Source: a virus
Strand: one strand, 5' to 3'
Length of the DNA stretch: 64,000 nucleotides
IMG/VR virus record: IMGVR_UViG_3300032431_000001
Location: 64,001 to 128,000 of that record
Below are positions 2,841 to 41,604 of the stretch, piece by piece. A program made the translations under genes and the position numbers. The notes under the pieces were generated by a model. The model ran no database searches. It was not told the DNA's origin and was given only the letters and a program-made list of their open reading frames with translations. Within the stretch, counting starts at the first letter, position 1, and each line of letters begins with the position of its first letter.

Positions 2841-5405
2841 ATGTCGTTAGAAGATAGCTATATTCAGACTCAAATTAATCTTTTAGAGCTGCACCTCGCC
2901 TTAGCTGGTGAGATTCCTAAGCGGTCTGGCGACTTTGAAAGCATCTACACAACCGAAAGCGGAAAAGAAGTAACTGTCAAACGATCGCCCGACGGAAAGT
3001 TCGCGTCGAAAAGCAGCACTCCAGGTACGGCTACTTCCGAAATAAAAGCGCCTCCAGCATTAGACCCGAAGGTTGCTCGTGAAAACGGTCAGGTAGTTAG
3101 AGAGGTTTTGACAGGTAAAGTCGGGGACGATCTGAAGAAAGATTTGGCGACTGATTTTAAACATAGACCCGATATTCAGCAGGCGATCGAGAAAGTTGAT
3201 TTTGCACAAATTCTCAAGGGCGATAAAGATGCCCTGAGCAATCTCAGTGATTTCACTAAGATTGCTTTTGAGCAAGCTGTGAACGCCACATCACAAGGCG
3301 CACAAGAAGTTTTGCGCGTTGCGATAAGTGTTGCTCAATTTACAGCAAGTGTTATTTTGCGGCAAATAGCTTTTGGGGGGACTTTGATCTTAGGATCTGC
3401 TGGAATTGTTGTTTTCAAAAAGGGAATGCGACCAGACAAGGCGATCACGCAGCAAGCCGCAGGTATCGCCCCAGGAACGATTAAGAAGATATTTTCATCA
3501 CCAAATATAACTCGAATTGCAAGCATCAGTCTTATCTTTAATGTCGTAGGTAAAGCTATCGAACTCGCAGCAAATGCTGTCCGCAAAGAAAAGCCACCAC
3601 TTGTCGAACCTTCTGCGGATGAGCAAATTAGAGAGACGCTTCGCTCTATCGGTGGCGATCGAATTAAATCAGGATTGATTGCTGGTGCGGCTAATTCTCC
3701 GAGTATCGTAGAAGGTATTGAAAATACAAAGATCGAAGATGTAGTTAAGGGTGATAAGGACACTATTGGTAACGCAATTGACTTCATGCAAGACCGTATG
3801 GATGATGCGATAAAAGCGGTATCTGAACACAAAAAAGAACTGGCGATCGGTGCGGTCGCAGTCGCCTGTATAACTGTAGGGACTGCGTTTGGCTTTGCGG
3901 CGGGTGTTGCTGGTCAGATGCTAATTGTCGATCTTATTGGAGAACTTATTGCAGGCAAAGGTATTCAAGAGGCTGCGAAAGTCGCGATAAAACAAGCTTC
4001 ACTCACAAGGGTCAAAGTTGTGGTAACTAATCCTATACTTGGATCTGTAATCGCACTTAATTTTTTGTTAAATATAAAAAACGTAATCAGCAAGCAAGTA
4101 AATATCGCAAATGGTTCTTTAGGTGAGGGTAGCTTTGGCGAAAACGAAGAAATGGTGAAAAAAATAGTTGCGGACGAGGGTTTGGATTATACAGAGGTAT
4201 TGGAGACGATCGCCCGCCGTAATGAGCAACAACCCAATCCCAAAAAAGCAGAGCAAGTTCAAAAACAAACATTAGAACTCCAAGGAAGAATCCAGGAAGG
4301 CGTCGCCAAAGTCCAGAAAATTGCTGCCGGGAAGTTGTCGTTAACTGCTTCTGATATTAGTCAAATCAGCAATATCGCCAAAAAAGAGGTTGAGATAAGA
4401 AATATACTTATAGAGAAAAAGGGCGCGCTAGAGCAAGCTGAGGGTCGAGGGTTTTCGCTCACCAAAAGGTTGAATGAGTTAGCGGAGATAGCTCAGAAAA
4501 AAGGAAAGGAGTCGCCTAGTTACAAGTGGCGAGTTAATGTTGTTAAAGCAGAGTTAAAATATGGAGAAAAGCTAGATAATCTCGGAGGGTTTGGTGGATA
4601 TGGCAAACTACTAAATTCGATGAAACAAACAAACCCCGCACCTGGTAAATACGAATTACCCGATAGTGAAGACGACCGCAAAATAACAAACTTATTCAAC
4701 CAGGGAGGTGCGGGGTCACGAACATCGACAAATGATAGATCCAAGGTAGTGGCTGGAGCTCAAAAGGCGGGGCAAGACCTTCAACAGTATTTAGCGACAC
4801 CAATCAATGCAAAAGTTGGTTTAGCGGGCGGTATTACTTGTGCTTTCCCAGGCGGAAACAACAAGTATTCACAAATGACTAAAGACGCCGCCGAGATAGA
4901 CCCAGGGATGAAATCATTTACAGAAACGGAATTGTTTAACGACAAGAGTGTAGATGGCTACATCAATATTGGAGATGTCTTATTGGCAAATGCGGGGCTT
5001 AAATTACAGGGCTATAACTCACTTGCCTCAACAAAGGAGCATACTAGAGAAATGATGTGGCACGAAAGCGGACACCTTCTTGAGGTTAAACTAGGGAAAG
5101 TAGAAGAATCTGTCGCGTTTCGAGAAGAGCGGGCTTCGGAAGTCCCTAATGATAGGAAGGAAATTCCCCCAACGGGATTAAGCCTTGGCTCCCAAGACTA
5201 TGCGCTAGGCGAGTTTTACTCACCCTATATCGGACTTAGGATGAGAGGTCTAGGGAAACACGCCCGCACCGAAAGGGCTACCGAAGTTTTATCGTCTGGC
5301 ATGGAACTACTCTCTAGTCCAACTATGGCAGAACGTGGTGCAAAAGCAGATAGAGAAACCATGCTCTACGCACTTTCCGCGATGAATGAAAAAGTATCAG
5401 ATTGA
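2841..5405 (+). CDS. large virion-associated protein with HEXXH metallopeptidase domain
   Basis: 854 residues from ATG 2841, four bases after the previous stop. Three parts are visible. An N-terminal region carries the motif RSPDGKFASKS (about residues 50-60), shared with the gene at 5789. A long helical middle holds two copies of a roughly 60-residue module (IREtL...GIENTKIEDVVKGDKD) and Ala/Gly-rich hydrophobic stretches (near residues 165-190 and 335-365) that could insert in membrane. The C-terminal domain has HESGH at residues 741-745 (bases 5061-5075) and a downstream ATEVLSSGMELL, whose Glu (about 815) is the likely third zinc ligand, as in gluzincin-type phage peptidases. A role as an internal or injected protein is inference. 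Confidence 0.6.
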   Translation: MSLEDSYIQTQINLLELHLALAGEIPKRSGDFESIYTTESGKEVTVKRSPDGKFASKSSTPGTATSEIKAPPALDPKVARENGQVVREVLTGKVGDDLKKDLATDFKHRPDIQQAIEKVDFAQILKGDKDALSNLSDFTKIAFEQAVNATSQGAQEVLRVAISVAQFTASVILRQIAFGGTLILGSAGIVVFKKGMRPDKAITQQAAGIAPGTIKKIFSSPNITRIASISLIFNVVGKAIELAANAVRKEKPPLVEPSADEQIRETLRSIGGDRIKSGLIAGAANSPSIVEGIENTKIEDVVKGDKDTIGNAIDFMQDRMDDAIKAVSEHKKELAIGAVAVACITVGTAFGFAAGVAGQMLIVDLIGELIAGKGIQEAAKVAIKQASLTRVKVVVTNPILGSVIALNFLLNIKNVISKQVNIANGSLGEGSFGENEEMVKKIVADEGLDYTEVLETIARRNEQQPNPKKAEQVQKQTLELQGRIQEGVAKVQKIAAGKLSLTASDISQISNIAKKEVEIRNILIEKKGALEQAEGRGFSLTKRLNELAEIAQKKGKESPSYKWRVNVVKAELKYGEKLDNLGGFGGYGKLLNSMKQTNPAPGKYELPDSEDDRKITNLFNQGGAGSRTSTNDRSKVVAGAQKAGQDLQQYLATPINAKVGLAGGITCAFPGGNNKYSQMTKDAAEIDPGMKSFTETELFNDKSVDGYINIGDVLLANAGLKLQGYNSLASTKEHTREMMWHESGHLLEVKLGKVEESVAFREERASEVPNDRKEIPPTGLSLGSQDYALGEFYSPYIGLRMRGLGKHARTERATEVLSSGMELLSSPTMAERGAKADRETMLYALSAMNEKVSD

Positions 5406-5410
5406 ATACT

Positions 5411-5749
5411 ATGGCAAACCCAGCATTTGGAATCGTGATTGGTGAAGAGATGACGCTATGGCTTTTAGAGATAGACTTAGGTAAGCAAAAGCCCACACAA
5501 TTAGCGCGAGGTGAAATCAAAGTTAAATTTCTTGTGGCAAATACAGAGGCATTGTATGAGGAGTTCTCAAGTCAATTCTTGAGTGTGCCGGGCGTACATT
5601 TTTCCACCTTAAAAGGTGGTTTTGGTTCCTACGCTGAAGTTAGGCATATTCTGGAAAGTATGTCTGGTGGAATGTGGGCGTTCAGCGAACGAAATGTCCC
5701 CAAAGAAAGAGGCGAATTGGGCGTCCCAGATAATCTTGCGCTTCTCTAA
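5411..5749 (+). CDS. small protein paired with the HEXXH gene
   Basis: 112 residues from ATG 5411; a TTG at 5402 that overlaps the upstream stop is an alternative start. Soluble and without recognised motifs (FGIVIGEEMTLWLLEIDLG at the N-terminus). Its tight coupling to the metallopeptidase gene suggests a chaperone, inhibitor or structural partner, but there is no direct evidence. Confidence 0.55.
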   Translation: MANPAFGIVIGEEMTLWLLEIDLGKQKPTQLARGEIKVKFLVANTEALYEEFSSQFLSVPGVHFSTLKGGFGSYAEVRHILESMSGGMWAFSERNVPKERGELGVPDNLALL

Positions 5750-5788
5750 TTGTTAACCGCTAATTAAAGTGATTCACAGAAAAAAACC

Positions 5789-7348
5789 ATGAACAATACA
5801 GCTTTCGACGCCAGTGAACTTCGTATTCAAAAGCTACTCTCAGACCTTCGATTCGACCTATTCGCGATCGAGCATTTGCAACTTGCCGAAGACGAAGCCA
5901 AGCCTAAACAATCGGGCAACTTCGAGACAACTACCAAAACAGAAGGCGGAAAAGAAATTAAAGTCACCCGATCGCCCGATGGAAAGTTCGCATCTAAAAG
6001 CGGTGGCGGTTCCGCGTCATCGGAATCAAAGTCTTCCACCAAGGGAGGTGCTGAACCGCCTGTATCTGCTGCGGACAGTTCAAAAGCTATTAGAGAAGGT
6101 CTTACTAAGGTTGCTGACGATCTTAAGGCTGGCTTGGCAAAGCTGGTTGACGATGATCCTGATGTCAGAGCTGGTGTTCAAAAAGCCATTATGGCCGACA
6201 TAGTTGGAAAGACTGGAGACGCGCTTACAAACGCTCGGCAATACATAGAGAACAAATTAAACGAAGCGGTTGCGGCGACAACTAAACAAAGTCGCGGAAT
6301 AGCGATCGGCGAGACGCTATTTGCTGGTTTGGCTGTCGCGGCGGTGGCTGGGGCTGCGACGATGGCTTTGGGTGCGAGTGTACCAATCACTGCCGGGGTA
6401 GCGGTTGGGTTCGGTGTGGCGACATTACAAATGGGTTCCCAAATATTGGGTGATGCAGCGAAAAAACGTACTAAAGAAGAATTAAAGAAATTCCAAGAAA
6501 GTACGCCGTGGGTAAAAGGCACTAATCCGAAATTACAGCAGATGGTTAAACGGCTAACAGAAGAAAATACCAAGGAGTCTAAACAGTTACTCGCAGACAT
6601 CAAGACTTCAGTTGATGCGGAAAGAGCGTCAATGGAAGAATTAGCCCCAAAGCTCGTACCACCAAAGTCTAACGAAGCGGCAAAAAAAGAGATAACAGGT
6701 GAAACTGGATCGGCTATCAAAAATGGTCTGATCGCCGGTGCAGCCGAAAATACAAACGTCGCCGCTGGAATCAAAACTACAGACATGGCGGATGTAGCAA
6801 AAGGAGAAGGTGACGCTTTTAGTAATGCTATGGACTTTATGAAAAATGCGATCTTTGATGCTGCCAAAGCTACTTCGACAGCAATTAAGGATTCTGCAAT
6901 TGGTAAGGCGATCATTGGGGTTCTGACAGCAGCTTACACAATGGGCGAAACATCCGGCGAAGCTGTGGGTAAATTTGCGCGGGAAAAAATAAGCGAGGCT
7001 TTGGATTCAACGCTGGTTGACGAAGAGATAGCAGAGACTTTGGCAGGCCTGACCCCAGAGAAGGTATCTGAAAACTTTGAGAAAGCTAAAGCATTTATGG
7101 CGGTAAAAGAAAATCAAGAGCAAGTAATAGCGACGATCAAGGAAAATATCGATGCTGCTGTTGCGGATATAAAATCAGGCAAGACGGCGGGCGATCTTAA
7201 GGCTAGAGTGAAAGATTTGGGCGATCGGATGAATAAAGCCGTCGAGACCTTGCAAGGTGAAATGAAAGCACAACGCGACAAGAAAGAATCCTTGAAACAA
7301 GAAAACAAGATAAGAGAAGAATTGAATTTCCAGAAAAGAGAGTTCTAG
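5789..7348 (+). CDS. paralogous internal-type virion protein
   Basis: 519 residues. Residues 40-75 closely match the N-terminal region of the 2841 gene, including GKEIKVTRSPDGKFASKS. Two copies of the same roughly 60-residue module follow (IREGLTKVADDLKAGL; IKNGLIAGAAENTNVAAG). A strongly hydrophobic Ala/Gly segment near residues 170-215 (GLAVAAVAGAATMALGASV) could form a membrane hairpin, and the C-terminus is a long charged coiled coil. There is no HEXXH site. It ends before a bidirectional terminator. Probably a shortened relative of the neighbour, packaged in the capsid or used in DNA delivery (inference). Confidence 0.6.
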   Translation: MNNTAFDASELRIQKLLSDLRFDLFAIEHLQLAEDEAKPKQSGNFETTTKTEGGKEIKVTRSPDGKFASKSGGGSASSESKSSTKGGAEPPVSAADSSKAIREGLTKVADDLKAGLAKLVDDDPDVRAGVQKAIMADIVGKTGDALTNARQYIENKLNEAVAATTKQSRGIAIGETLFAGLAVAAVAGAATMALGASVPITAGVAVGFGVATLQMGSQILGDAAKKRTKEELKKFQESTPWVKGTNPKLQQMVKRLTEENTKESKQLLADIKTSVDAERASMEELAPKLVPPKSNEAAKKEITGETGSAIKNGLIAGAAENTNVAAGIKTTDMADVAKGEGDAFSNAMDFMKNAIFDAAKATSTAIKDSAIGKAIIGVLTAAYTMGETSGEAVGKFAREKISEALDSTLVDEEIAETLAGLTPEKVSENFEKAKAFMAVKENQEQVIATIKENIDAAVADIKSGKTAGDLKARVKDLGDRMNKAVETLQGEMKAQRDKKESLKQENKIREELNFQKREF

Positions 7349-7375
7349 TGACTCGGATGGGAAGACAAAAAAATT

Positions 7376-7411
7376 GAAGCGGGCGATCACCACAAAGAGA
7401 TCGCCCGCTTC
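7376..7411. terminator. bidirectional terminator
   Basis: Stem GAAGCGGGCGATC / GATCGCCCGCTTC with A- and T-rich flanks, between the converging genes at 5789 (plus) and 7433 (minus). The stem contains the HIP1 core. Confidence 0.8.
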
Positions 7412-7432
7412 GATTTTCGCCCGCAAGAAATT

Positions 7433-7912
7433 CTACTTGCGATCGCCGTACATATCGGAAATATCGTCGCGGTTGAATTGTAATCCGCGTTGATATTCGT
7501 CTTGAGTCCAGCGCAAAACGTGCGGGTTAACTGTGCCTAGCGTCATCATTTCATAAATCCAAACATTGATATCCGCTTGAAATTCTGGATTAGACATAGC
7601 ATAGGACATAGCCAACGCGGGATGCACCCAGATTTTTTGCCCGCGCCCTGGAACGTAGTCTATCAGGGGGATTACGTTAGATACGATTTTATGCGTACCT
7701 AAATTTTGTCGGTCAATAGGAAGGTTTAGTCGTTCAGAAAGTCGAGAGAGTAACCTTGTCGCAAACTGAGTCCTTTTCCAGTCCGAGAAAGTCTTCTCAA
7801 GAACTTCGCTCATGTCTGAAGCGCAAAAATATCCGTCTTTGCCGCGAATCTCAATTTTGCGTCCGTTGTATTCAGGGAATTGATCGAAAAAGGATAGCAT
7901 TAGCTTAGCCAT
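7433..7912 (-). CDS. KilA-N domain regulator
   Basis: 159 residues from the ATG at 7912; the frame stays open upstream to 8002, but that part does not look coding. The pattern GKDGYFCASDM, then F-DW-RT----LLSRLS and KIWVHPALAMSYAMSNPEFQ, is that of KilA-N, a DNA-binding domain of phage and large-DNA-virus regulators. The C-terminus (WTQDEYQRGLQFNRDDI) recurs in the pseudogene at 9127-9407. Likely a transcriptional regulator or antirepressor. Confidence 0.8.
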   Translation of the reverse strand: MAKLMLSFFDQFPEYNGRKIEIRGKDGYFCASDMSEVLEKTFSDWKRTQFATRLLSRLSERLNLPIDRQNLGTHKIVSNVIPLIDYVPGRGQKIWVHPALAMSYAMSNPEFQADINVWIYEMMTLGTVNPHVLRWTQDEYQRGLQFNRDDISDMYGDRK

Positions 7913-8051
7913 GATTTGTACCTTTAATACAGAACTGGTCAGTGTCGATCGCCCTTTCGTAAGAAGGTTGATCGCCACGCTCAAAAATTGAGATGCCAAC
8001 ATTCTACCAAAATCTACCCTGTGATCGTAGGTTGCGGTTAATTCAAAAATT

Positions 8052-8090
8052 GAAGCGGGCGATCGAGATTAATAATCGATCGCCCGCTTC
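8052..8090. terminator. terminator after the C39 gene
   Basis: Long perfect stem GAAGCGGGCGATCGA / TCGATCGCCCGCTTC. It lies downstream of the minus gene 8125-8940 and upstream of KilA-N. Confidence 0.75.
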
Positions 8091-8124
8091 AACTTTTAAA
8101 TGCAATATTCACCTATCGGACTTC

Positions 8125-8940
8125 CTATCTGTACTTACCCTCAATCAAAACTTTAGCTACAGCAGAGTTGATCACTAAAACTCCTGACAGCGGTTGAAAA
8201 CTAAGCACGAAATTCTCCCATGCCTTCTGCGTAATCGGGCCCCAGATACCGTCCGGCGTCCCTGGCTGGAAGTGTGGAAACCGCGTCAAGCAAATTTGAA
8301 TCTGCTTAACCAAGCCACGGTCTTTCTTAACCTCATCGACAGAGACTGTCAGGTTCTTTTCAAAAATATCTTGCAAGCGTAACCCGCCAAATTCCCCGGG
8401 CTTCCAAACTCGTTTGTCGTTTGATGGGCCGTCAAAAAAGTGTATCCAAAGCTCTTGATTTGAGTCTGGGCCACACAGTCTTTCCATCATCCCGTAACTG
8501 TATGTCAATCCTTCCCCGCTGGCACTGGTATCGTATCCGCTTGCATACCATTCGCCGTAAGGGTCATGGACTATCCAGCCTTTCTCGTTGTAGCCGATGA
8601 TTACAAGGATATGACCAAACGCAGTGAACCAGCCGTGAACTATGCAGGGCTTCCCACCATCAAGCCACGCTTTCACTTGATCCCATTTAGCGCGACTGTC
8701 AAATCGAGGGCGGTAGCCATGCTTTTGAGCAAGAATTACCAAGTCGCCGGGAGAATGGCGAGACAAGCCATTGGCGAGACAATACTTGGTAAGATAGTCT
8801 TCTAACTGTTGCCCATTAGGTCTGAGAAGTGGCTCTCCAAAGAAGCCAAAACACATAGCAACAGACGTTGTGTTGCAGGTTCCTGTCGGACGAACTAAGT
8901 TATTAAGCTGAGATAAATATGGAACTTTTAGAATTTTCAT
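8125..8940 (-). CDS. C39-like peptidase with peptidoglycan-binding domain
   Basis: 271 residues. Residues 1-150 form a papain-like C39 fold with Cys22 in PTGTCNTTSVAM, His110 in FGHILVIIGY and Asp126 in VHDPYGE as the catalytic triad. Residues about 215-255 (LTRFPHFQPGTPDGIWGPIT) fit a PG-binding-1 domain. The combination suggests a cell-wall amidase or peptidase, i.e. a lysis or entry enzyme. The same C39 domain is fused to a GH19 lysozyme in the 22521 gene. No signal peptide, so release would need a holin or virion delivery. Confidence 0.8.
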   Translation of the reverse strand: MKILKVPYLSQLNNLVRPTGTCNTTSVAMCFGFFGEPLLRPNGQQLEDYLTKYCLANGLSRHSPGDLVILAQKHGYRPRFDSRAKWDQVKAWLDGGKPCIVHGWFTAFGHILVIIGYNEKGWIVHDPYGEWYASGYDTSASGEGLTYSYGMMERLCGPDSNQELWIHFFDGPSNDKRVWKPGEFGGLRLQDIFEKNLTVSVDEVKKDRGLVKQIQICLTRFPHFQPGTPDGIWGPITQKAWENFVLSFQPLSGVLVINSAVAKVLIEGKYR

Positions 8941-9126
8941 CGGAAATCTGGGTTAAAAACCCAGCCCTTCTAGGACGGCTTTAATTGGTTCTGAACAAGG
9001 TGGGTGATCTCGTTGTGGCGATCGCCCTCTTTTTCCTTTTTATTGTAAAATTAGCGTTAAGCGCGATCGATCCAAACGATTCACACTTAACTAAACAGTT
9101 AACTCTACATCCGAGGGTCAAACGCC

Positions 9127-9407
9127 TAAAGTCATTATATCGTGGTTCGATCAATTGCCTAAGTACAACGACCAGAAAATTGGGATTCGTGGCAAAGATG
9201 TTCTGGACGAACTTTCGATACAGACGAGGTTGCCGATTACCCACGAAGACAGCGAAAAAGCGACTCCTCATTTGCGAGGAGTCGCTCTCAAACCCTTTGA
9301 TAGACTACGTTAGGCGTGTTAAATCCCATATCCGAAATTGGACGGAAGAAAAGTTTCAGCGGGGGTTGCAATTTAATCGCGACGACATCGACGAACTATA
9401 TAGTTGA
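9127..9407 (+). pseudogene. decayed KilA-N gene copy
   Basis: One frame from 9127 reads KVIISWFDQLPKYNDQKIGI then RGKD, matching the start of the 7433-7912 protein. It then loses about 30 residues of the domain core and hits a stop. A second frame gives SNPLIDYV and then NWTEEKFQRGLQFNRDDIDE, matching that protein's C-terminus. So this is an inverted, deleted and frameshifted copy. A short hairpin, GCGACTCCT / AGGAGTCGC (9260-9285), lies at the break and may mark an inserted palindrome. Otherwise 8941-9503 holds no gene. Confidence 0.75.
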
Positions 9408-9460
9408 TCGATCGCCCGTCCCGATCGCCAGCAATTCAATTTCACCGAGCAACGCACAAA

Positions 9461-9494
9461 AAAACGGGTGATCTAAATTAGATCACCCGTTTTT
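9461..9494. terminator. bidirectional terminator
   Basis: Near-perfect palindrome AAAACGGGTGATCTAA / TTAGATCACCCGTTTT, downstream of the minus gene at 9504 and of the KilA-N remnant on the plus strand. Confidence 0.75.
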
Positions 9495-9503
9495 TACGAC
9501 TTT

Positions 9504-9914
9504 TTACTCCAGTATGTAGAGCGCTCCTGTGGAGTCCTCTTTTATTTCAGACTTCCAGATTATTCTTGTTCTTTTTTCATTGAGGTAGAATTCCCCTGGC
9601 GTGGGTTGTTCTTTCTCTCGAAGGCACCCGTTGTACCATTTACCGATAAAAGGCCTGGCCTTTTCTTCTGAGACTTCTTCGCAGAAAAAATGACCTCTAC
9701 TGTTTGTGTAAGCCCAGTAGTAGAGTCCTTCGTTGGACACTAGCCTGTCTGTGTAGAAGACTTGAGGATGCCAGCGATCTTGCCCGCCGGCATCGTTGTC
9801 ACGAAAACATTCGGCACCATCGCGAGTGCCGAGCACTTTATAGACAGTTTCTGAGACTTCTACAATCCCAAAAATAGTGTTAAAAAACGAAGCGGATCTG
9901 CGAACTACTTGCAT
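9504..9914 (-). CDS. hypothetical protein
   Basis: 136 residues from ATG 9914; an upstream in-frame ATG at 9962 would add 16. Soluble, rich in aromatic and acidic residues (GLYYWAYTNSRGHFFCEEV; YNGCLREKEQPTPGEFYL). No family recognised. Flanked by its own terminator, so probably a single-gene unit. Confidence 0.55.
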   Translation of the reverse strand: MQVVRRSASFFNTIFGIVEVSETVYKVLGTRDGAECFRDNDAGGQDRWHPQVFYTDRLVSNEGLYYWAYTNSRGHFFCEEVSEEKARPFIGKWYNGCLREKEQPTPGEFYLNEKRTRIIWKSEIKEDSTGALYILE

Positions 9915-10067
9915 TTGTTTTATCTTTGAATTACTTATTTGTCTGTAGTTACATTGTATCATTTTAATAATTAAAACACAAGCGCGTTGTATCTAGTCAG
10001 ATTACAATTACATAGTTGATAACATTTGTGTTAAAACTATTCATGTGGTTCCTGGAATTTAACACCA

Positions 10068-11597
10068 ATGAGATACAGTCCAGTTTGCAAGCCAAATCAA
10101 TTGATCTGCGGCGAGGGGCAAATAGTAGTAGTCAGCGGTTGGACGCAATCTAAATTTATAGCGCAACACATAGACGCTAGGGATTATGCTGCTATCGGGC
10201 AACTATATTCACCTACTCGCGGTATTAGTTTTTTGCTCCGAAATTTGCTAGCTAACCCGCACGTACACGCTTTGATCACCATTAATGCTACGAGCGCAGA
10301 CACTAACGCTGGTTCTGTTAAAGCACTTGTGGATTTTTTCAACAACGGATTTGAGCTTGGTAAGAGTGACACAGGACGCGAGTGCTGGGTCATAAAATCC
10401 GAGAAAGTTGGATACATAGACATAGAGATTAAAGAATCCGCTTTGGAATTGCTAAGAAAATCGATCGCCTACTGGGAGGTATCTTCAGTTGCCGACGCGA
10501 TCGAAAAGGTGAATTTACTGGCAAGCTCGATCGCCAGCGCTGAAAGTTTTTCTGAAGGTACGGCGATAAAGTCGTGGGCTGAACCGATGACTTTCCCCGT
10601 ATCGGAAATTGAATCAATTGTGTTTCCGGGACAGAGATATGGACACAGAATTGAAGGTGTCACCATTGCTGAAACCTGGGTAAAACTGCTGCACCGTATC
10701 AGGACAACAGGAACCATGCGCCCTACGAGATATGACGGGCAGTGGCAAGAACTGATCGACTTAATGGCGATCGTCACCGACGAACCACCTGACTTTTACT
10801 TTCCCGATCCCAACTTTCTTCCGCTCGATCGCCAGTTCCTCGACAGTTACATTCCTCAAATTCTTGATGACGCAACTTACACGGAGGGTGTGAAGTACAC
10901 CTACGGGCAGCGGATGAGATCGTGGTTTAGTAACGACCAGATCGAAGAAGTCATATCTAAGCTTGTCAATGAAATTGATACTGCCAGTGCGGTAATCAGC
11001 CTGTGGGATGCCGGAGGCAACTGGAAACGAAATCCTGACGGGTATTCAGATCATAAACACGGTGCCAGTCCTTGTTTGAACCACATCTGGTTCCGCGTTG
11101 TAGACAGTGTGTTTTCGATGACGGCAACTTTCCGCAGCAACGATATGTTTTCGGCGTGGCCTTCTAATGCAATGGGTCTACGGGCATTGCAACAGTACGT
11201 CCGAAACGAGATTTACAGGCGATCGGATTGCAATCTCGTAATGGGGCCATTAATCACAATTAGTCAGAGCGCGCACATCTACGATGATACTTTTGAGAAC
11301 GTGGATATGTTAATCCAGCAGCAATACGCAAAAATCGCCAAAGTCCAAAACTTCAGTGATCCTGTTGGTAACTTTTTGATCGAAATTGAGGGCGATCGAA
11401 TTCAAATTTCCCGTACAACTCCGGGCAGCGGTGAAGTGATCGGCTGCTATTCAGATAAACACGCACTCGGTTTAATTCGACAGATTTGTGCAGATGTTCC
11501 GGCGATCGATCCAGAACATATTGGCTACCTTGGGATTGAGTTGGAAAAAGCGAGACGGGCGATCGAAAGTAATTCAATCTACATTCAGGATAGATAA
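10068..11597 (+). CDS. thyA: thymidylate synthase with extra N-terminal domain
   Basis: 509 residues, far longer than ordinary ThyA (about 264). The C-terminal half has the thymidylate synthase signature in a divergent form: active-site Cys336 in GASPCLNHIW (usual LPPCH), RSNDM at 355-359 in place of RSxD, and SQSAHIYDD near residue 408 in place of GD-H-Y. The N-terminal part (about 15-130: VVVSGW, IGQLYSPTRGISFLLRNLLA, NPHVHALI, FFNNGFELG) resembles the DUF4346/MtrA-type domain fused to TS in cyanobacteria and methanogens. It would make dTMP for viral DNA synthesis. Single-gene unit with its own terminator. Confidence 0.8.
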   Translation: MRYSPVCKPNQLICGEGQIVVVSGWTQSKFIAQHIDARDYAAIGQLYSPTRGISFLLRNLLANPHVHALITINATSADTNAGSVKALVDFFNNGFELGKSDTGRECWVIKSEKVGYIDIEIKESALELLRKSIAYWEVSSVADAIEKVNLLASSIASAESFSEGTAIKSWAEPMTFPVSEIESIVFPGQRYGHRIEGVTIAETWVKLLHRIRTTGTMRPTRYDGQWQELIDLMAIVTDEPPDFYFPDPNFLPLDRQFLDSYIPQILDDATYTEGVKYTYGQRMRSWFSNDQIEEVISKLVNEIDTASAVISLWDAGGNWKRNPDGYSDHKHGASPCLNHIWFRVVDSVFSMTATFRSNDMFSAWPSNAMGLRALQQYVRNEIYRRSDCNLVMGPLITISQSAHIYDDTFENVDMLIQQQYAKIAKVQNFSDPVGNFLIEIEGDRIQISRTTPGSGEVIGCYSDKHALGLIRQICADVPAIDPEHIGYLGIELEKARRAIESNSIYIQDR

Positions 11598-36051: not shown

Positions 36052-36285
36052 ATGATTTTAGATTATATTCGAGTGATCCCTAGAAACTTATTTAATGAAG
36101 GAAAGCTTCTAACGGAACTTGGGTTTCTTTCATTGGCGATCCATGACAATAAAGACAATATTGCTACCGTCTTGGAAATGGTAGTGACATACTCCCACAT
36201 CAAACCGAGTACGGTTATAATGTGCGCTTCTTTGCAGCCCGATGAAGGGTGTGCAAAATTTCCTTCGTGGTACTTTCATCCATAG
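36052..36285 (+). CDS. small gene with IS-derived end
   Basis: ATG 36052 gives MILDYIRVIPRNLFNEGKLL and continues to VLEMV at 36183, where the tnpB element begins; the rest of the frame is IS sequence. Across the insertion the uninterrupted gene probably ended with a TAA just before the terminator at 37844. So the native protein is about 44 residues. Confidence 0.5.
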   Translation: MILDYIRVIPRNLFNEGKLLTELGFLSLAIHDNKDNIATVLEMVVTYSHIKPSTVIMCASLQPDEGCAKFPSWYFHP

Positions 36286-36300
36286 TTCCTACTACAGAAA
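36184..36300 (-). ncRNA. candidate omega-RNA, copy A
   Basis: 3' end of tnpB plus right-end hairpin; the guide would be the flank TACCATTTCCAAGACGGTAG. Inferred. Confidence 0.4.
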
Positions 36301-37597
36301 TCTTTCCACTACGGCGTTTTATACTGGGGAAGATGCCCACCCCCAGTCTCTTTAAGTTAATCGCAGCATTAATGTCGCGGTCAACTATCAAAGATTCCGA
36401 CTCATCCCAATAGTCTCTGATACTGCAATCGGTGAAAATTATTTCATCTCGATAGCTGAGAACCATTGATGTGTAAGCAGGATTTTTAGAAACAACAACT
36501 GCTCCAGCTTTTGAGGCTATGTAGTCCAGCGTTTTGAAAAAGTTACCAAATGCAGCATCAGACCAAGACTTATTTAGCCCTGACTTTGCCGATTGACCAT
36601 TTGGCAAAAATGTTCCATCTTCAGCCTGTTTAGATTTGTTCCGCTTGGTTAAACCTTTTAGGTTCAAATCCTCGTGGATGAAGACTTTCTTTCCAGTTTT
36701 TACCAGCTTGTGTGCTGTCTTGTAGTGGAAGTCTTTTCTTGATCTGGCAATACGTTGATGCTGTCTAGCTTCACGTTTTGCTAGTTTGCGACGAGATTTG
36801 CTACCTCGTTTCCGCTTATTTCGCTTGGTTGAAATCCGGTTTAATTTAGTTTGGTTTTTGCGAAGAGGCTTAAGAGACGGTAGTTTTCCACCTTCAGAGG
36901 TTGCCAAGTACACGTCTTCATGCAGCACAGCATCCATACCTAACGAATTGTCCCAGGTCGGTACAATTGCGTCCTGACTTTGGGTTGGTACACGCACGTC
37001 TTCCAAGACGAATTGAACAAACCAACCATCAGCTTTTTTGGTGACACTGACTTGCTTGATCATGAATCCGTCTGGGATGCGACGGTGCATTCTGACTTTG
37101 ACGATTCCCAGTTTTGGGAGTCGTAAGTACAGCCAGTTCTTGCGAATCAGCTTGATCCAGTTATTACTCGCCGTCGCGAAAGTCATAGTTCTGAAGCTAG
37201 CTTCAGATTTAAACCGTGGTTTGCCCGACTTACCACCGTTGCTGTCGCCAACGATAAATCGCTCAAACGCTTTATCAACACGCTTTGATACGTCTTGTAA
37301 AACGGTTGCGTCCACTCTTGAAAAGTTCAGCAATTCACCGCTATGAAAAACTTTTACCAAATCTTTCTTGATAATTGGTAACTGTTTTTTCTGGCTATAA
37401 TAGTTGGGCTTTTCTCGAACAGGGGCGATACTACTAATTAACGGACAAGCATTTATGCTTGAACGATTCATCGACCACCAATCAAACCTGTCTCCCAGTT
37501 GCCGATTGTACCAATAACGACAAATTCTCAGCCACTCGTTTAATATGAGTTTCTGATTAGTGTCGGGATCTAGTTTGTATTGGTACGTTGTTTGCAC
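36215..37597 (-). CDS. tnpB: TnpB, zinc-finger-less cyanobacterial type
   Basis: 460 residues. RuvC-I is NSLGMDAVLHEDVYL, RuvC-II Glu is in VFIHEDLNLKGL, RuvC-III is LIVDRDINAAINL. Where most TnpB have CxxC...CxxC, this has YTSMVLSYRDEIIFTDCSIR, so the zinc finger is replaced. Identical in protein sequence to 40222-41604. Confidence 0.9.
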   Translation of the reverse strand: MQTTYQYKLDPDTNQKLILNEWLRICRYWYNRQLGDRFDWWSMNRSSINACPLISSIAPVREKPNYYSQKKQLPIIKKDLVKVFHSGELLNFSRVDATVLQDVSKRVDKAFERFIVGDSNGGKSGKPRFKSEASFRTMTFATASNNWIKLIRKNWLYLRLPKLGIVKVRMHRRIPDGFMIKQVSVTKKADGWFVQFVLEDVRVPTQSQDAIVPTWDNSLGMDAVLHEDVYLATSEGGKLPSLKPLRKNQTKLNRISTKRNKRKRGSKSRRKLAKREARQHQRIARSRKDFHYKTAHKLVKTGKKVFIHEDLNLKGLTKRNKSKQAEDGTFLPNGQSAKSGLNKSWSDAAFGNFFKTLDYIASKAGAVVVSKNPAYTSMVLSYRDEIIFTDCSIRDYWDESESLIVDRDINAAINLKRLGVGIFPSIKRRSGKISVVGTMDESTTKEILHTLHRAAKKRTL

Positions 37598-40190: not shown

Positions 40191-40307
40191 GTGACATACT
40201 CCCACATCAAACCGAGTACGGTTATAATGTGCGCTTCTTTGCAGCCCGATGAAGGGTGTGCAAAATTTCCTTCGTGGTACTTTCATCCATAGTTCCTACT
40301 ACAGAAA
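40191..40307 (-). ncRNA. candidate omega-RNA, copy B
   Basis: Same scaffold as copy A; the guide would be AGTTCCTTCACTGTAAACTA, i.e. the leader of the HTH gene. Inferred. Confidence 0.4.
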
Positions 40308-41604
40308 TCTTTCCACTACGGCGTTTTATACTGGGGAAGATGCCCACCCCCAGTCTCTTTAAGTTAATCGCAGCATTAATGTCGCGGTCAACTATCAAAG
40401 ATTCCGACTCATCCCAATAGTCTCTGATACTGCAATCGGTGAAAATTATTTCATCTCGATAGCTGAGAACCATTGATGTGTAAGCAGGATTTTTAGAAAC
40501 AACAACTGCTCCAGCTTTTGAGGCTATGTAGTCCAGCGTTTTGAAAAAGTTACCAAATGCAGCATCAGACCAAGACTTATTTAGCCCTGACTTTGCCGAT
40601 TGACCATTTGGCAAAAATGTTCCATCTTCAGCCTGTTTAGATTTGTTCCGCTTGGTTAAACCTTTTAGGTTCAAATCCTCGTGGATGAAGACTTTCTTTC
40701 CAGTTTTTACCAGCTTGTGTGCTGTCTTGTAGTGGAAGTCTTTTCTTGATCTGGCAATACGTTGATGCTGTCTAGCTTCACGTTTTGCTAGTTTGCGACG
40801 AGATTTGCTACCTCGTTTCCGCTTATTTCGCTTGGTTGAAATCCGGTTTAATTTAGTTTGGTTTTTGCGAAGAGGCTTAAGAGACGGTAGTTTTCCACCT
40901 TCAGAGGTTGCCAAGTACACGTCTTCATGCAGCACAGCATCCATACCTAACGAATTGTCCCAGGTCGGTACAATTGCGTCCTGACTTTGGGTTGGTACAC
41001 GCACGTCTTCCAAGACGAATTGAACAAACCAACCATCAGCTTTTTTGGTGACACTGACTTGCTTGATCATGAATCCGTCTGGGATGCGACGGTGCATTCT
41101 GACTTTGACGATTCCCAGTTTTGGGAGTCGTAAGTACAGCCAGTTCTTGCGAATCAGCTTGATCCAGTTATTACTCGCCGTCGCGAAAGTCATAGTTCTG
41201 AAGCTAGCTTCAGATTTAAACCGTGGTTTGCCCGACTTACCACCGTTGCTGTCGCCAACGATAAATCGCTCAAACGCTTTATCAACACGCTTTGATACGT
41301 CTTGTAAAACGGTTGCGTCCACTCTTGAAAAGTTCAGCAATTCACCGCTATGAAAAACTTTTACCAAATCTTTCTTGATAATTGGTAACTGTTTTTTCTG
41401 GCTATAATAGTTGGGCTTTTCTCGAACAGGGGCGATACTACTAATTAACGGACAAGCATTTATGCTTGAACGATTCATCGACCACCAATCAAACCTGTCT
41501 CCCAGTTGCCGATTGTACCAATAACGACAAATTCTCAGCCACTCGTTTAATATGAGTTTCTGATTAGTGTCGGGATCTAGTTTGTATTGGTACGTTGTTT
41601 GCAC
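40222..41604 (-). CDS. tnpB: TnpB, second identical copy
   Basis: 460 residues, the same protein as 36215-37597: RuvC-I Asp in LGMDAVL, RuvC-II Glu in IHEDLNLKG, RuvC-III Asp in VDRDINAA, no zinc-finger cysteine pairs. Intact. The complete identity points to recent transposition or gene conversion. The left-end sequence from 41605 to 41850 is noncoding. Confidence 0.9.
   Translation of the reverse strand: MQTTYQYKLDPDTNQKLILNEWLRICRYWYNRQLGDRFDWWSMNRSSINACPLISSIAPVREKPNYYSQKKQLPIIKKDLVKVFHSGELLNFSRVDATVLQDVSKRVDKAFERFIVGDSNGGKSGKPRFKSEASFRTMTFATASNNWIKLIRKNWLYLRLPKLGIVKVRMHRRIPDGFMIKQVSVTKKADGWFVQFVLEDVRVPTQSQDAIVPTWDNSLGMDAVLHEDVYLATSEGGKLPSLKPLRKNQTKLNRISTKRNKRKRGSKSRRKLAKREARQHQRIARSRKDFHYKTAHKLVKTGKKVFIHEDLNLKGLTKRNKSKQAEDGTFLPNGQSAKSGLNKSWSDAAFGNFFKTLDYIASKAGAVVVSKNPAYTSMVLSYRDEIIFTDCSIRDYWDESESLIVDRDINAAINLKRLGVGIFPSIKRRSGKISVVGTMDESTTKEILHTLHRAAKKRTL

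What the first reader, a model, noticed from the sequence alone, without database searches (positions are those of the whole stretch)
2841..7348. Paralogous pair of putative ejected proteins, one a zinc peptidase
Two neighbouring virion-region genes share an N-terminal RSPDGKFASKS tag, 60-residue modules and Ala/Gly hydrophobic stretches. One adds a HESGH domain with a downstream Glu. The shared N-terminus may be a capsid-targeting or ejection tag; the hydrophobic parts suggest membrane crossing; the peptidase would act in the host after entry.
Basis: partly seen in the sequence, partly recalled or inferred. Interest (0 to 1): 0.75.

Follow-up and report, generated by a model that had tools for sequence, protein, structure and literature searches.

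The report
Leader-tagged phage cargo with zinc peptidase
A virus of cyanobacteria carries a small family of proteins that share one short front end but have different bodies, one of them ending in a protein-cutting (zinc peptidase) domain; this looks like a shipping label that loads varied proteins into the virus head for delivery into the host, although no experiment yet shows that they are in the particle.

Summary
Gene A (2841-5405, 854 aa) and gene B (5789-7348, 519 aa) are paralogues (E 3e-34) with a common leader ending in RSPDGKFASKS. The leader is a separable unit: 13 proteins in six related phage contigs carry it, on bodies of at least two unrelated families. A's C-terminus is a real HExxH...E domain. 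A profile built only from other phages finds it at E 5e-10, and the same domain occurs in 44 viral loci, about half of the carriers fused to MuF virion domains. So the peptidase is a known kind of phage cargo (MuF toxins, polyvalent proteins). The phage has no MuF protein; the carrier here is the leader plus hydrophobic modules. The same genome has a second leader-like HETGH protein beside the portal gene. A 112-aa ORF follows A directly, is kept in three phages, and fits a general pattern (27 of 36 such peptidase genes versus 29 of 142 control genes), so it is a candidate inhibitor. Structure prediction puts HExxH and the third ligand in confident helices, but no fold match was found. Virion presence, ejection and proteolysis are inferred, not shown. 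New variant of a known kind.

The parts
2841..5405 (+). Gene A: 854-aa leader protein with C-terminal HExxH peptidase domain
   Evidence: ORF; 91% identical orthologue in IMGVR_UViG_3300022839_001510, 42% over most of its length in a Richelia MAG contig
2841..3020 (+). Leader of A: N-terminal helix, predicted hairpin, tag RSPDGKFASKS at 2982-3014
   Evidence: alignment A7 of 11 leaders; leader 61% versus body 28% identical between A and B
3051..3311 (+). Module 1 of A (residues 71-157)
   Evidence: BLASTP to Y3 module, E 7.6e-9
3582..3842 (+). Module 2 of A (residues 248-334)
   Evidence: BLASTP to Y3 module, 46%, E 1.5e-23
3516..4076 (+). Hydrophobic Ala/Gly-rich segments of A (residues 226-244, 334-352, 394-412)
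   Evidence: Kyte-Doolittle scan with shuffles
4455..4583 (+). Segment shared with protein C (A 539-581)
   Evidence: BLASTP 42% over 43 aa, E 6e-6; also G000:C1:3808-3939
4737..5402 (+). HExxH metallopeptidase-like domain of A: HESGH 5061-5075, invariant Y796, G798, third-ligand E815 at 5283-5285
   Evidence: independent phage profile E 5e-10; A4 conservation; AlphaFold2 pLDDT about 70-90 over most of residues 734-848
5411..5749 (+). 112-aa partner ORF directly after A; candidate inhibitor or chaperone of the peptidase
   Evidence: conserved at the same place in L006:7520-7858 and L081:12952-13290; general pattern
5789..7348 (+). Gene B: 519-aa leader protein without peptidase domain
   Evidence: ORF; paralogue of A; all-helical low-confidence model
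5789..6007 (+). Leader of B, tag RSPDGKFASKS at 5969-6001
6056..6301 (+). Module 1 of B (residues 90-171)
6299..6418 (+). Hydrophobic segments of B (171-189, 192-210)
6614..6877 (+). Module 2 of B (residues 276-363)

Best explanation
A and B belong to a tandem, recombining family of virion cargo proteins of cyanobacterial phages. A constant leader of about 60 residues (amphipathic helix, predicted beta-hairpin, then [D/G]G[K/Q]FAxK/G) loads them into the prohead, as the T4 capsid targeting sequence does. The bodies, helical modules with Ala/Gly-rich hydrophobic segments, leave with the DNA and probably contact or cross the host membrane. A additionally delivers a zinc-peptidase domain of the type found on MuF phage proteins; it cuts either itself and its fellow cargo, or a host target. 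The 112-aa ORF after A probably keeps the peptidase inactive in the producing cell. Shown here: paralogy, separable leader, domain homology, gene order, partner linkage. Inferred: packaging, ejection, membrane contact, activity and inhibition.
For: Leader 61% versus body 28% identical between A and B. Leader present on X1/Y1-type bodies with no detectable similarity to A/B bodies and on a Richelia-contig protein of that type encoded before the putative protease/scaffold gene. In the Richelia A orthologue, homology to A resumes at A residue 252, so the leader joins almost directly to module 2. The domain is homologous to those of phage minor head and MuF proteins; 15 of 32 architectures carry PF04233. 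Protein C in the same genome has a leader-like N-terminus and HETGH, beside the portal gene. No PF04233 was found in three carrier records. Partner ORF pattern: 27/36 versus 29/142, p 1.6e-9. A parallel case is cyanophage PaV-LD: five genes share a Cys tag, with an ART domain (PF01129) in one and HExxH in two. T4 CTS: the first 10 residues of IPIII suffice for incorporation, and CTS fusions package foreign proteins (PMC9026906).
Against: No proteomics. The putative prohead protease is not recognised by any profile. Hydrophobicity is only moderately above shuffled. A near-identical contig (L003) has a stop at codon 241 of A and C' in L020 is frameshifted just before HETGH, so the peptidases may be dispensable, or these are sequencing errors. 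No fold match in PDB.
Confidence: 0.6

Rival explanations
1. Processing peptidase: the domain acts during head assembly or after entry on A itself and on sister leader proteins, releasing bodies from leaders; it has no host target.
For: Iyer et al. propose self-processing for zincin domains of P1 DdrB and N4 vRNAP (PMC5512222). The leader proteins in one genome would be natural substrates.
Against: Y-type and D-type leader proteins occur in loci where no peptidase is fused at that position. The domain is spread over unrelated carriers in many phages. A linked small partner suggests control of a harmful activity.
Confidence: 0.25
2. Ejectosome or membrane-channel proteins: A and B mainly build a conduit like T7 gp14-16 or P22 gp7/16/20, and the peptidase domain is a local envelope-opening tool.
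For: Hydrophobic Ala/Gly segments and long helices in A, B and relatives.
Against: Copy number and body type vary freely between close relatives; D is absent from the window phage. The phage has its own giant tape-measure-like ORF, so it probably has a long tail.
Confidence: 0.15
3. Ordinary scaffold or head-completion proteins; the leader is conserved only because the genes are recent duplicates, and HExxH is structural or inactive.
For: They sit between head-tail adaptor and terminase; the AlphaFold model of B has low confidence.
Against: The leader sits on unrelated bodies. Catalytic H, E, H and E are invariant in 35 diverse sequences.
Confidence: 0.1

Closest known systems
MuF polymorphic toxins of phages (Jamet et al. 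2017, PMC5576092)
   Same: Virion-region gene; homologous C-terminal HExxH domain; small ORF directly downstream. That paper reports metallopeptidase domains in 20% of 191 MuF toxins and a small ORF after 89.4% of them.
   Different: No MuF domain in A, C or the genome; carried instead by a leader and hydrophobic modules; tandem paralogues; C is divergent from the portal gene, with its small ORF upstream.
Zincin-like peptidase domains of phage polyvalent proteins (Iyer et al. 2017, PMC5512222)
   Same: HExxH helix followed by a helix with the third-ligand Glu; encoded among late virion genes; predicted to enter the host or process its carrier.
   Different: One recognisable enzymatic domain only. 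Whether it falls in one of that paper's 12 clades was not tested.
T4 internal proteins IPI-III and Alt with capsid targeting sequence (PMC9026906)
   Same: Constant short N-terminus on divergent bodies; variable gene content between close relatives.
   Different: No sequence similarity shown; the leader is about 60 residues rather than about 10; no cleavage site or protease established.
Planktothrix phage PaV-LD ORF078-081 and 085
   Same: Cyanophage; cluster of genes with one shared tag and swapped cargo, including the same HExxH domain.
   Different: An unrelated Cys-rich tag; cargo includes ADP-ribosyltransferase; no hydrophobic modules noted.

Membership tests
MuF polymorphic toxins | MuF domain (PF04233 or related) | tested here: not met
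   No Pfam MuF hit in A, B or C; PF04233 absent from G000, G001 and the Richelia genome at E 0.1, controls positive
MuF polymorphic toxins | C-terminal toxin domain shared with MuF toxins | tested here: met
   Profile from phage minor head and MuF proteins finds A at 5e-10 and C at 1.5e-15 among 919 ORFs; 15/32 homologues carry PF04233
MuF polymorphic toxins | Small immunity-type ORF next to the toxin gene | tested here: met
   Window 5411-5749, conserved in L006 and L081; function untested
Zincin metallopeptidases | HExxH plus a downstream Glu ligand | tested here: met
   H741, E742, H745 and E815 invariant in A4
Zincin metallopeptidases | Zincin fold with the three ligands around one metal | tested here: inconclusive
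   Ligands in confident helices; no coordinates available; no PDB fold match, model dominated by a helical part
T4-type capsid-targeted internal proteins | Constant N-terminal leader on divergent bodies | tested here: met
T4-type capsid-targeted internal proteins | Found inside the virion and ejected | not testable with these tools
   Needs virion mass spectrometry and infection assays
T4-type capsid-targeted internal proteins | Leader removed by the prohead protease | not tested
   No protease identified by profile
Tail tape-measure protein | Sole long helical tail-length protein of the genome | tested here: not met
   Separate giant ORF at G000 40.0-50.2 kb (with an open frame at 35.6-40.0 kb before it) hits tape-measure phrog_58, 1.6e-6; B's Tape_meas_lam_C hit is E 0.04, below the cut-off

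The most novel reading that the evidence does not exclude
A lineage of cyanobacterial phages has replaced the MuF carrier by its own modular delivery label. One leader is recombined onto interchangeable bodies to load a changing set of proteins into the head, and the zinc-peptidase cargo is made together with a dedicated small inhibitor. In a subset of such phage pairs the partner protein ends in a hydrophobic-aromatic C-terminal tail that may plug the active site.
Probability: 0.4. Interest if true: 0.75.

Novelty: new variant of a known kind. Interest (0 to 1): 0.58.

Why it matters
If right, it gives a second, MuF-independent label for loading cargo into phage heads, testable by simple fusion, and links a phage-delivered zinc peptidase to a candidate cognate inhibitor. 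It also suggests that shared tags on swapped cargo recur in cyanophages, since PaV-LD uses an unrelated tag in the same way. Virion proteins are a main source of early host-takeover activities, and most remain unnamed.

Tried and rejected
Pfam, NCBIfam and PDB sequence searches with the peptidase domain gave no significant family or solved relative. Foldseek and VIA-align of the A 470-854 model matched only helical parts; the best BFVD match was one unnamed phage protein (E 0.17, prob 1.00, 134 columns, 3.6 A). The model of B was too poor to search. tblastn of A in the phage collection found nothing, and the leader query gave only weak chance-like hits. I first suspected that the window's twin 460-aa ORFs were portal copies; they are identical transposases. 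Pairwise comparison of the small ORFs beside A and C was not significant; profiles make them mutual best hits outside their own groups at E 0.04 and 0.11, hhalign P 0.001: suggestive only. The tape-measure idea was rejected.

Full report
What is there. The window is bases 64001-128000 of a 188,399-base virus record. The host is probably a cyanobacterium: the palindrome GCGATCGC (HIP1, a cyanobacterial signature from general knowledge) occurs 28 times against 0.6 expected; a thymidylate synthase with a C-terminal DUF4346 domain lies at 10068-11597; and the only relative found in the genome collection is a contig of a Richelia MAG. The head genes run major head protein, adaptor, A, small ORF, B; a terminase gene follows. 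A starts at ATG 2841, just after the adaptor gene (stop at 2836). The stop of A (5403-5405) is followed by the small ORF at ATG 5411; a TTG at 5402 would overlap the end of A. B starts at 5789.

The leader. A, B and relatives share roughly the first 60 residues. Between A and B the leader segment is 61% identical and the bodies 28%. Bodies fall into two families by BLASTP: the A/B/D/X2/Y2/Y3 family with one or two modules of about 85 residues, and the X1/Y1/Richelia-5183 family, with no significant similarity to the first. In the Richelia A orthologue the leader is followed almost at once by the part homologous to A from residue 252. So the leader behaves as a unit of recombination. Copy number varies: phage 3300022839 has a third tandem member D (L006:9504-10334) that the window phage lacks, and 3300018890 has three leader genes at this place, none with a peptidase domain. 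Protein C (L011:2911-4668) and its relative in L020 have a similar start (FQIQ...LALAE...GGQFA.GKK), seen by eye and not scored as significant.

The peptidase domain. The C-terminal part of A recurs in C of the same genome. tblastn with C and C' reached phage proteins annotated as minor head protein, head morphogenesis, structural protein or metallopeptidase. A profile from eight of those sequences alone, searched against 919 ORFs from the window and related loci, returned C, C', A' and A at E 1.5e-15 to 5e-10, and nothing else better than E 2.5. A scan of viral contigs gave 44 loci. Across 35 sequences the residues H741, E742, H745, Y796, G798, E815, S818 and G820 of A are invariant, and R633, E748, R764, T814 and D837 nearly so. 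In 32 full-length carriers, 15 match PF04233 and one matches a portal domain; no Pfam family covers the peptidase domain itself. AlphaFold2 gives pLDDT of roughly 70-90 for most of the catalytic region, with dips to about 50-60, HExxH within helix 267-281 and the third ligand at the start of helix 345-354 of the model.

The partner ORF. Among 36 non-redundant HExxH genes, 27 are directly followed by an ORF of 60-130 aa, against 29 of 142 control genes in the same loci (Fisher p 1.6e-9). Jamet et al. reported the like for MuF toxins in general, so the link itself is known. What I have not found described is that 11 of the 27 end in a hydrophobic residue followed by a terminal aromatic one, against 1 of 29 controls (p 8e-4); the motif was chosen after looking at the sequences, so this needs independent data, and at least one control is itself a member of the partner family. 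The ORF after A does not end that way (NLALL); the one beside C does (NGAMY).

How it probably works. Leader-guided loading into the prohead, ejection with DNA, membrane contact through Ala/Gly segments, and then cleavage of a host or phage protein, with the partner guarding the producing cell. Only the first element has comparative support; the rest follows from the MuF, polyvalent-protein and T4 internal-protein literature (PMC5576092, PMC5512222, PMC9026906; SPN3US ejection proteins in PMC5694885). PaV-LD offers an independent parallel: a Cys-rich tag shared by five genes whose bodies are an ADP-ribosyltransferase in 079 (PF01129, with 085 homologous to it), the HExxH domain in 080 and 081, and an unknown body in 078. 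ORF081 is annotated as a virion structural protein; I could not establish whether by mass spectrometry.

Weak points. Two near relatives carry disruptions: a stop at codon 241 of A in L003 (a contig 99.88% identical to the window over 14.5 kb) and a frameshift before HETGH in L020. Either these are sequencing errors or the peptidase is dispensable. The viral contigs here are few and closely related, and several statistics rest on alignments made after seeing the pattern.

Verdict. Observation confirmed; interpretation partly supported. The peptidase is a new member of a known class of phage cargo domains. The carrier, a shuffled constant leader without MuF, is a new variant of head-loading labels if packaging is confirmed.

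Noticed in passing
L011:2911-4668 (G000:C1) and L011:2549-2911: Second HETGH protein (C, 585 aa) with leader-like start beside the portal gene; a 110-120 aa ORF overlaps its start and may be homologous to the ORF after A.
   Followed up: partly
L031 (Planktothrix phage PaV-LD) 4575-12639: Five genes share a Cys-rich tag (KPQCVKPTxYNCGxACIN) with swapped cargo: ADP-ribosyltransferase in one with a homologue, HExxH in two. L033 has a similar tag on an HExxH protein.
   Followed up: partly
L027-L029, L031-L075, ORFs right after the HExxH genes: Small downstream proteins often end in a hydrophobic residue plus Y or F at the very C-terminus (11 of 27 versus 1 of 29 controls); possible active-site plug.
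   Followed up: partly
L006:9504-10334 versus window 7302-10024: A third tandem leader gene (D) in a 93% identical relative is missing here; the window instead has a block of minus-strand genes, including a C39-like peptidase gene at 8125-8940.
   Followed up: partly
window 36215-37597 and 40222-41604: Two identical (100% DNA) 460-codon transposase genes (phrog_506) 4 kb apart.
   Followed up: no
L014:6456-8171 (G000:C1:62456-64171): 571-aa protein before the major head protein looks like a prohead protease fused to a coiled-coil scaffold, but no profile recognises it.
   Followed up: partly
L003 codon 241 of A; L020 near 9375: Nonsense codon in A of a near-identical contig, and a frameshift just before HETGH in the C relative.
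   Followed up: partly
window 10068-11597: Thymidylate synthase with a C-terminal DUF4346 domain.
   Followed up: no
L076:2853-6269: HExxH carrier of 1139 aa with the tag GAGSGHFAHEGRPGKVGGSAP twice, also on a neighbouring ORF: another repeated short tag on phage cargo.
   Followed up: no
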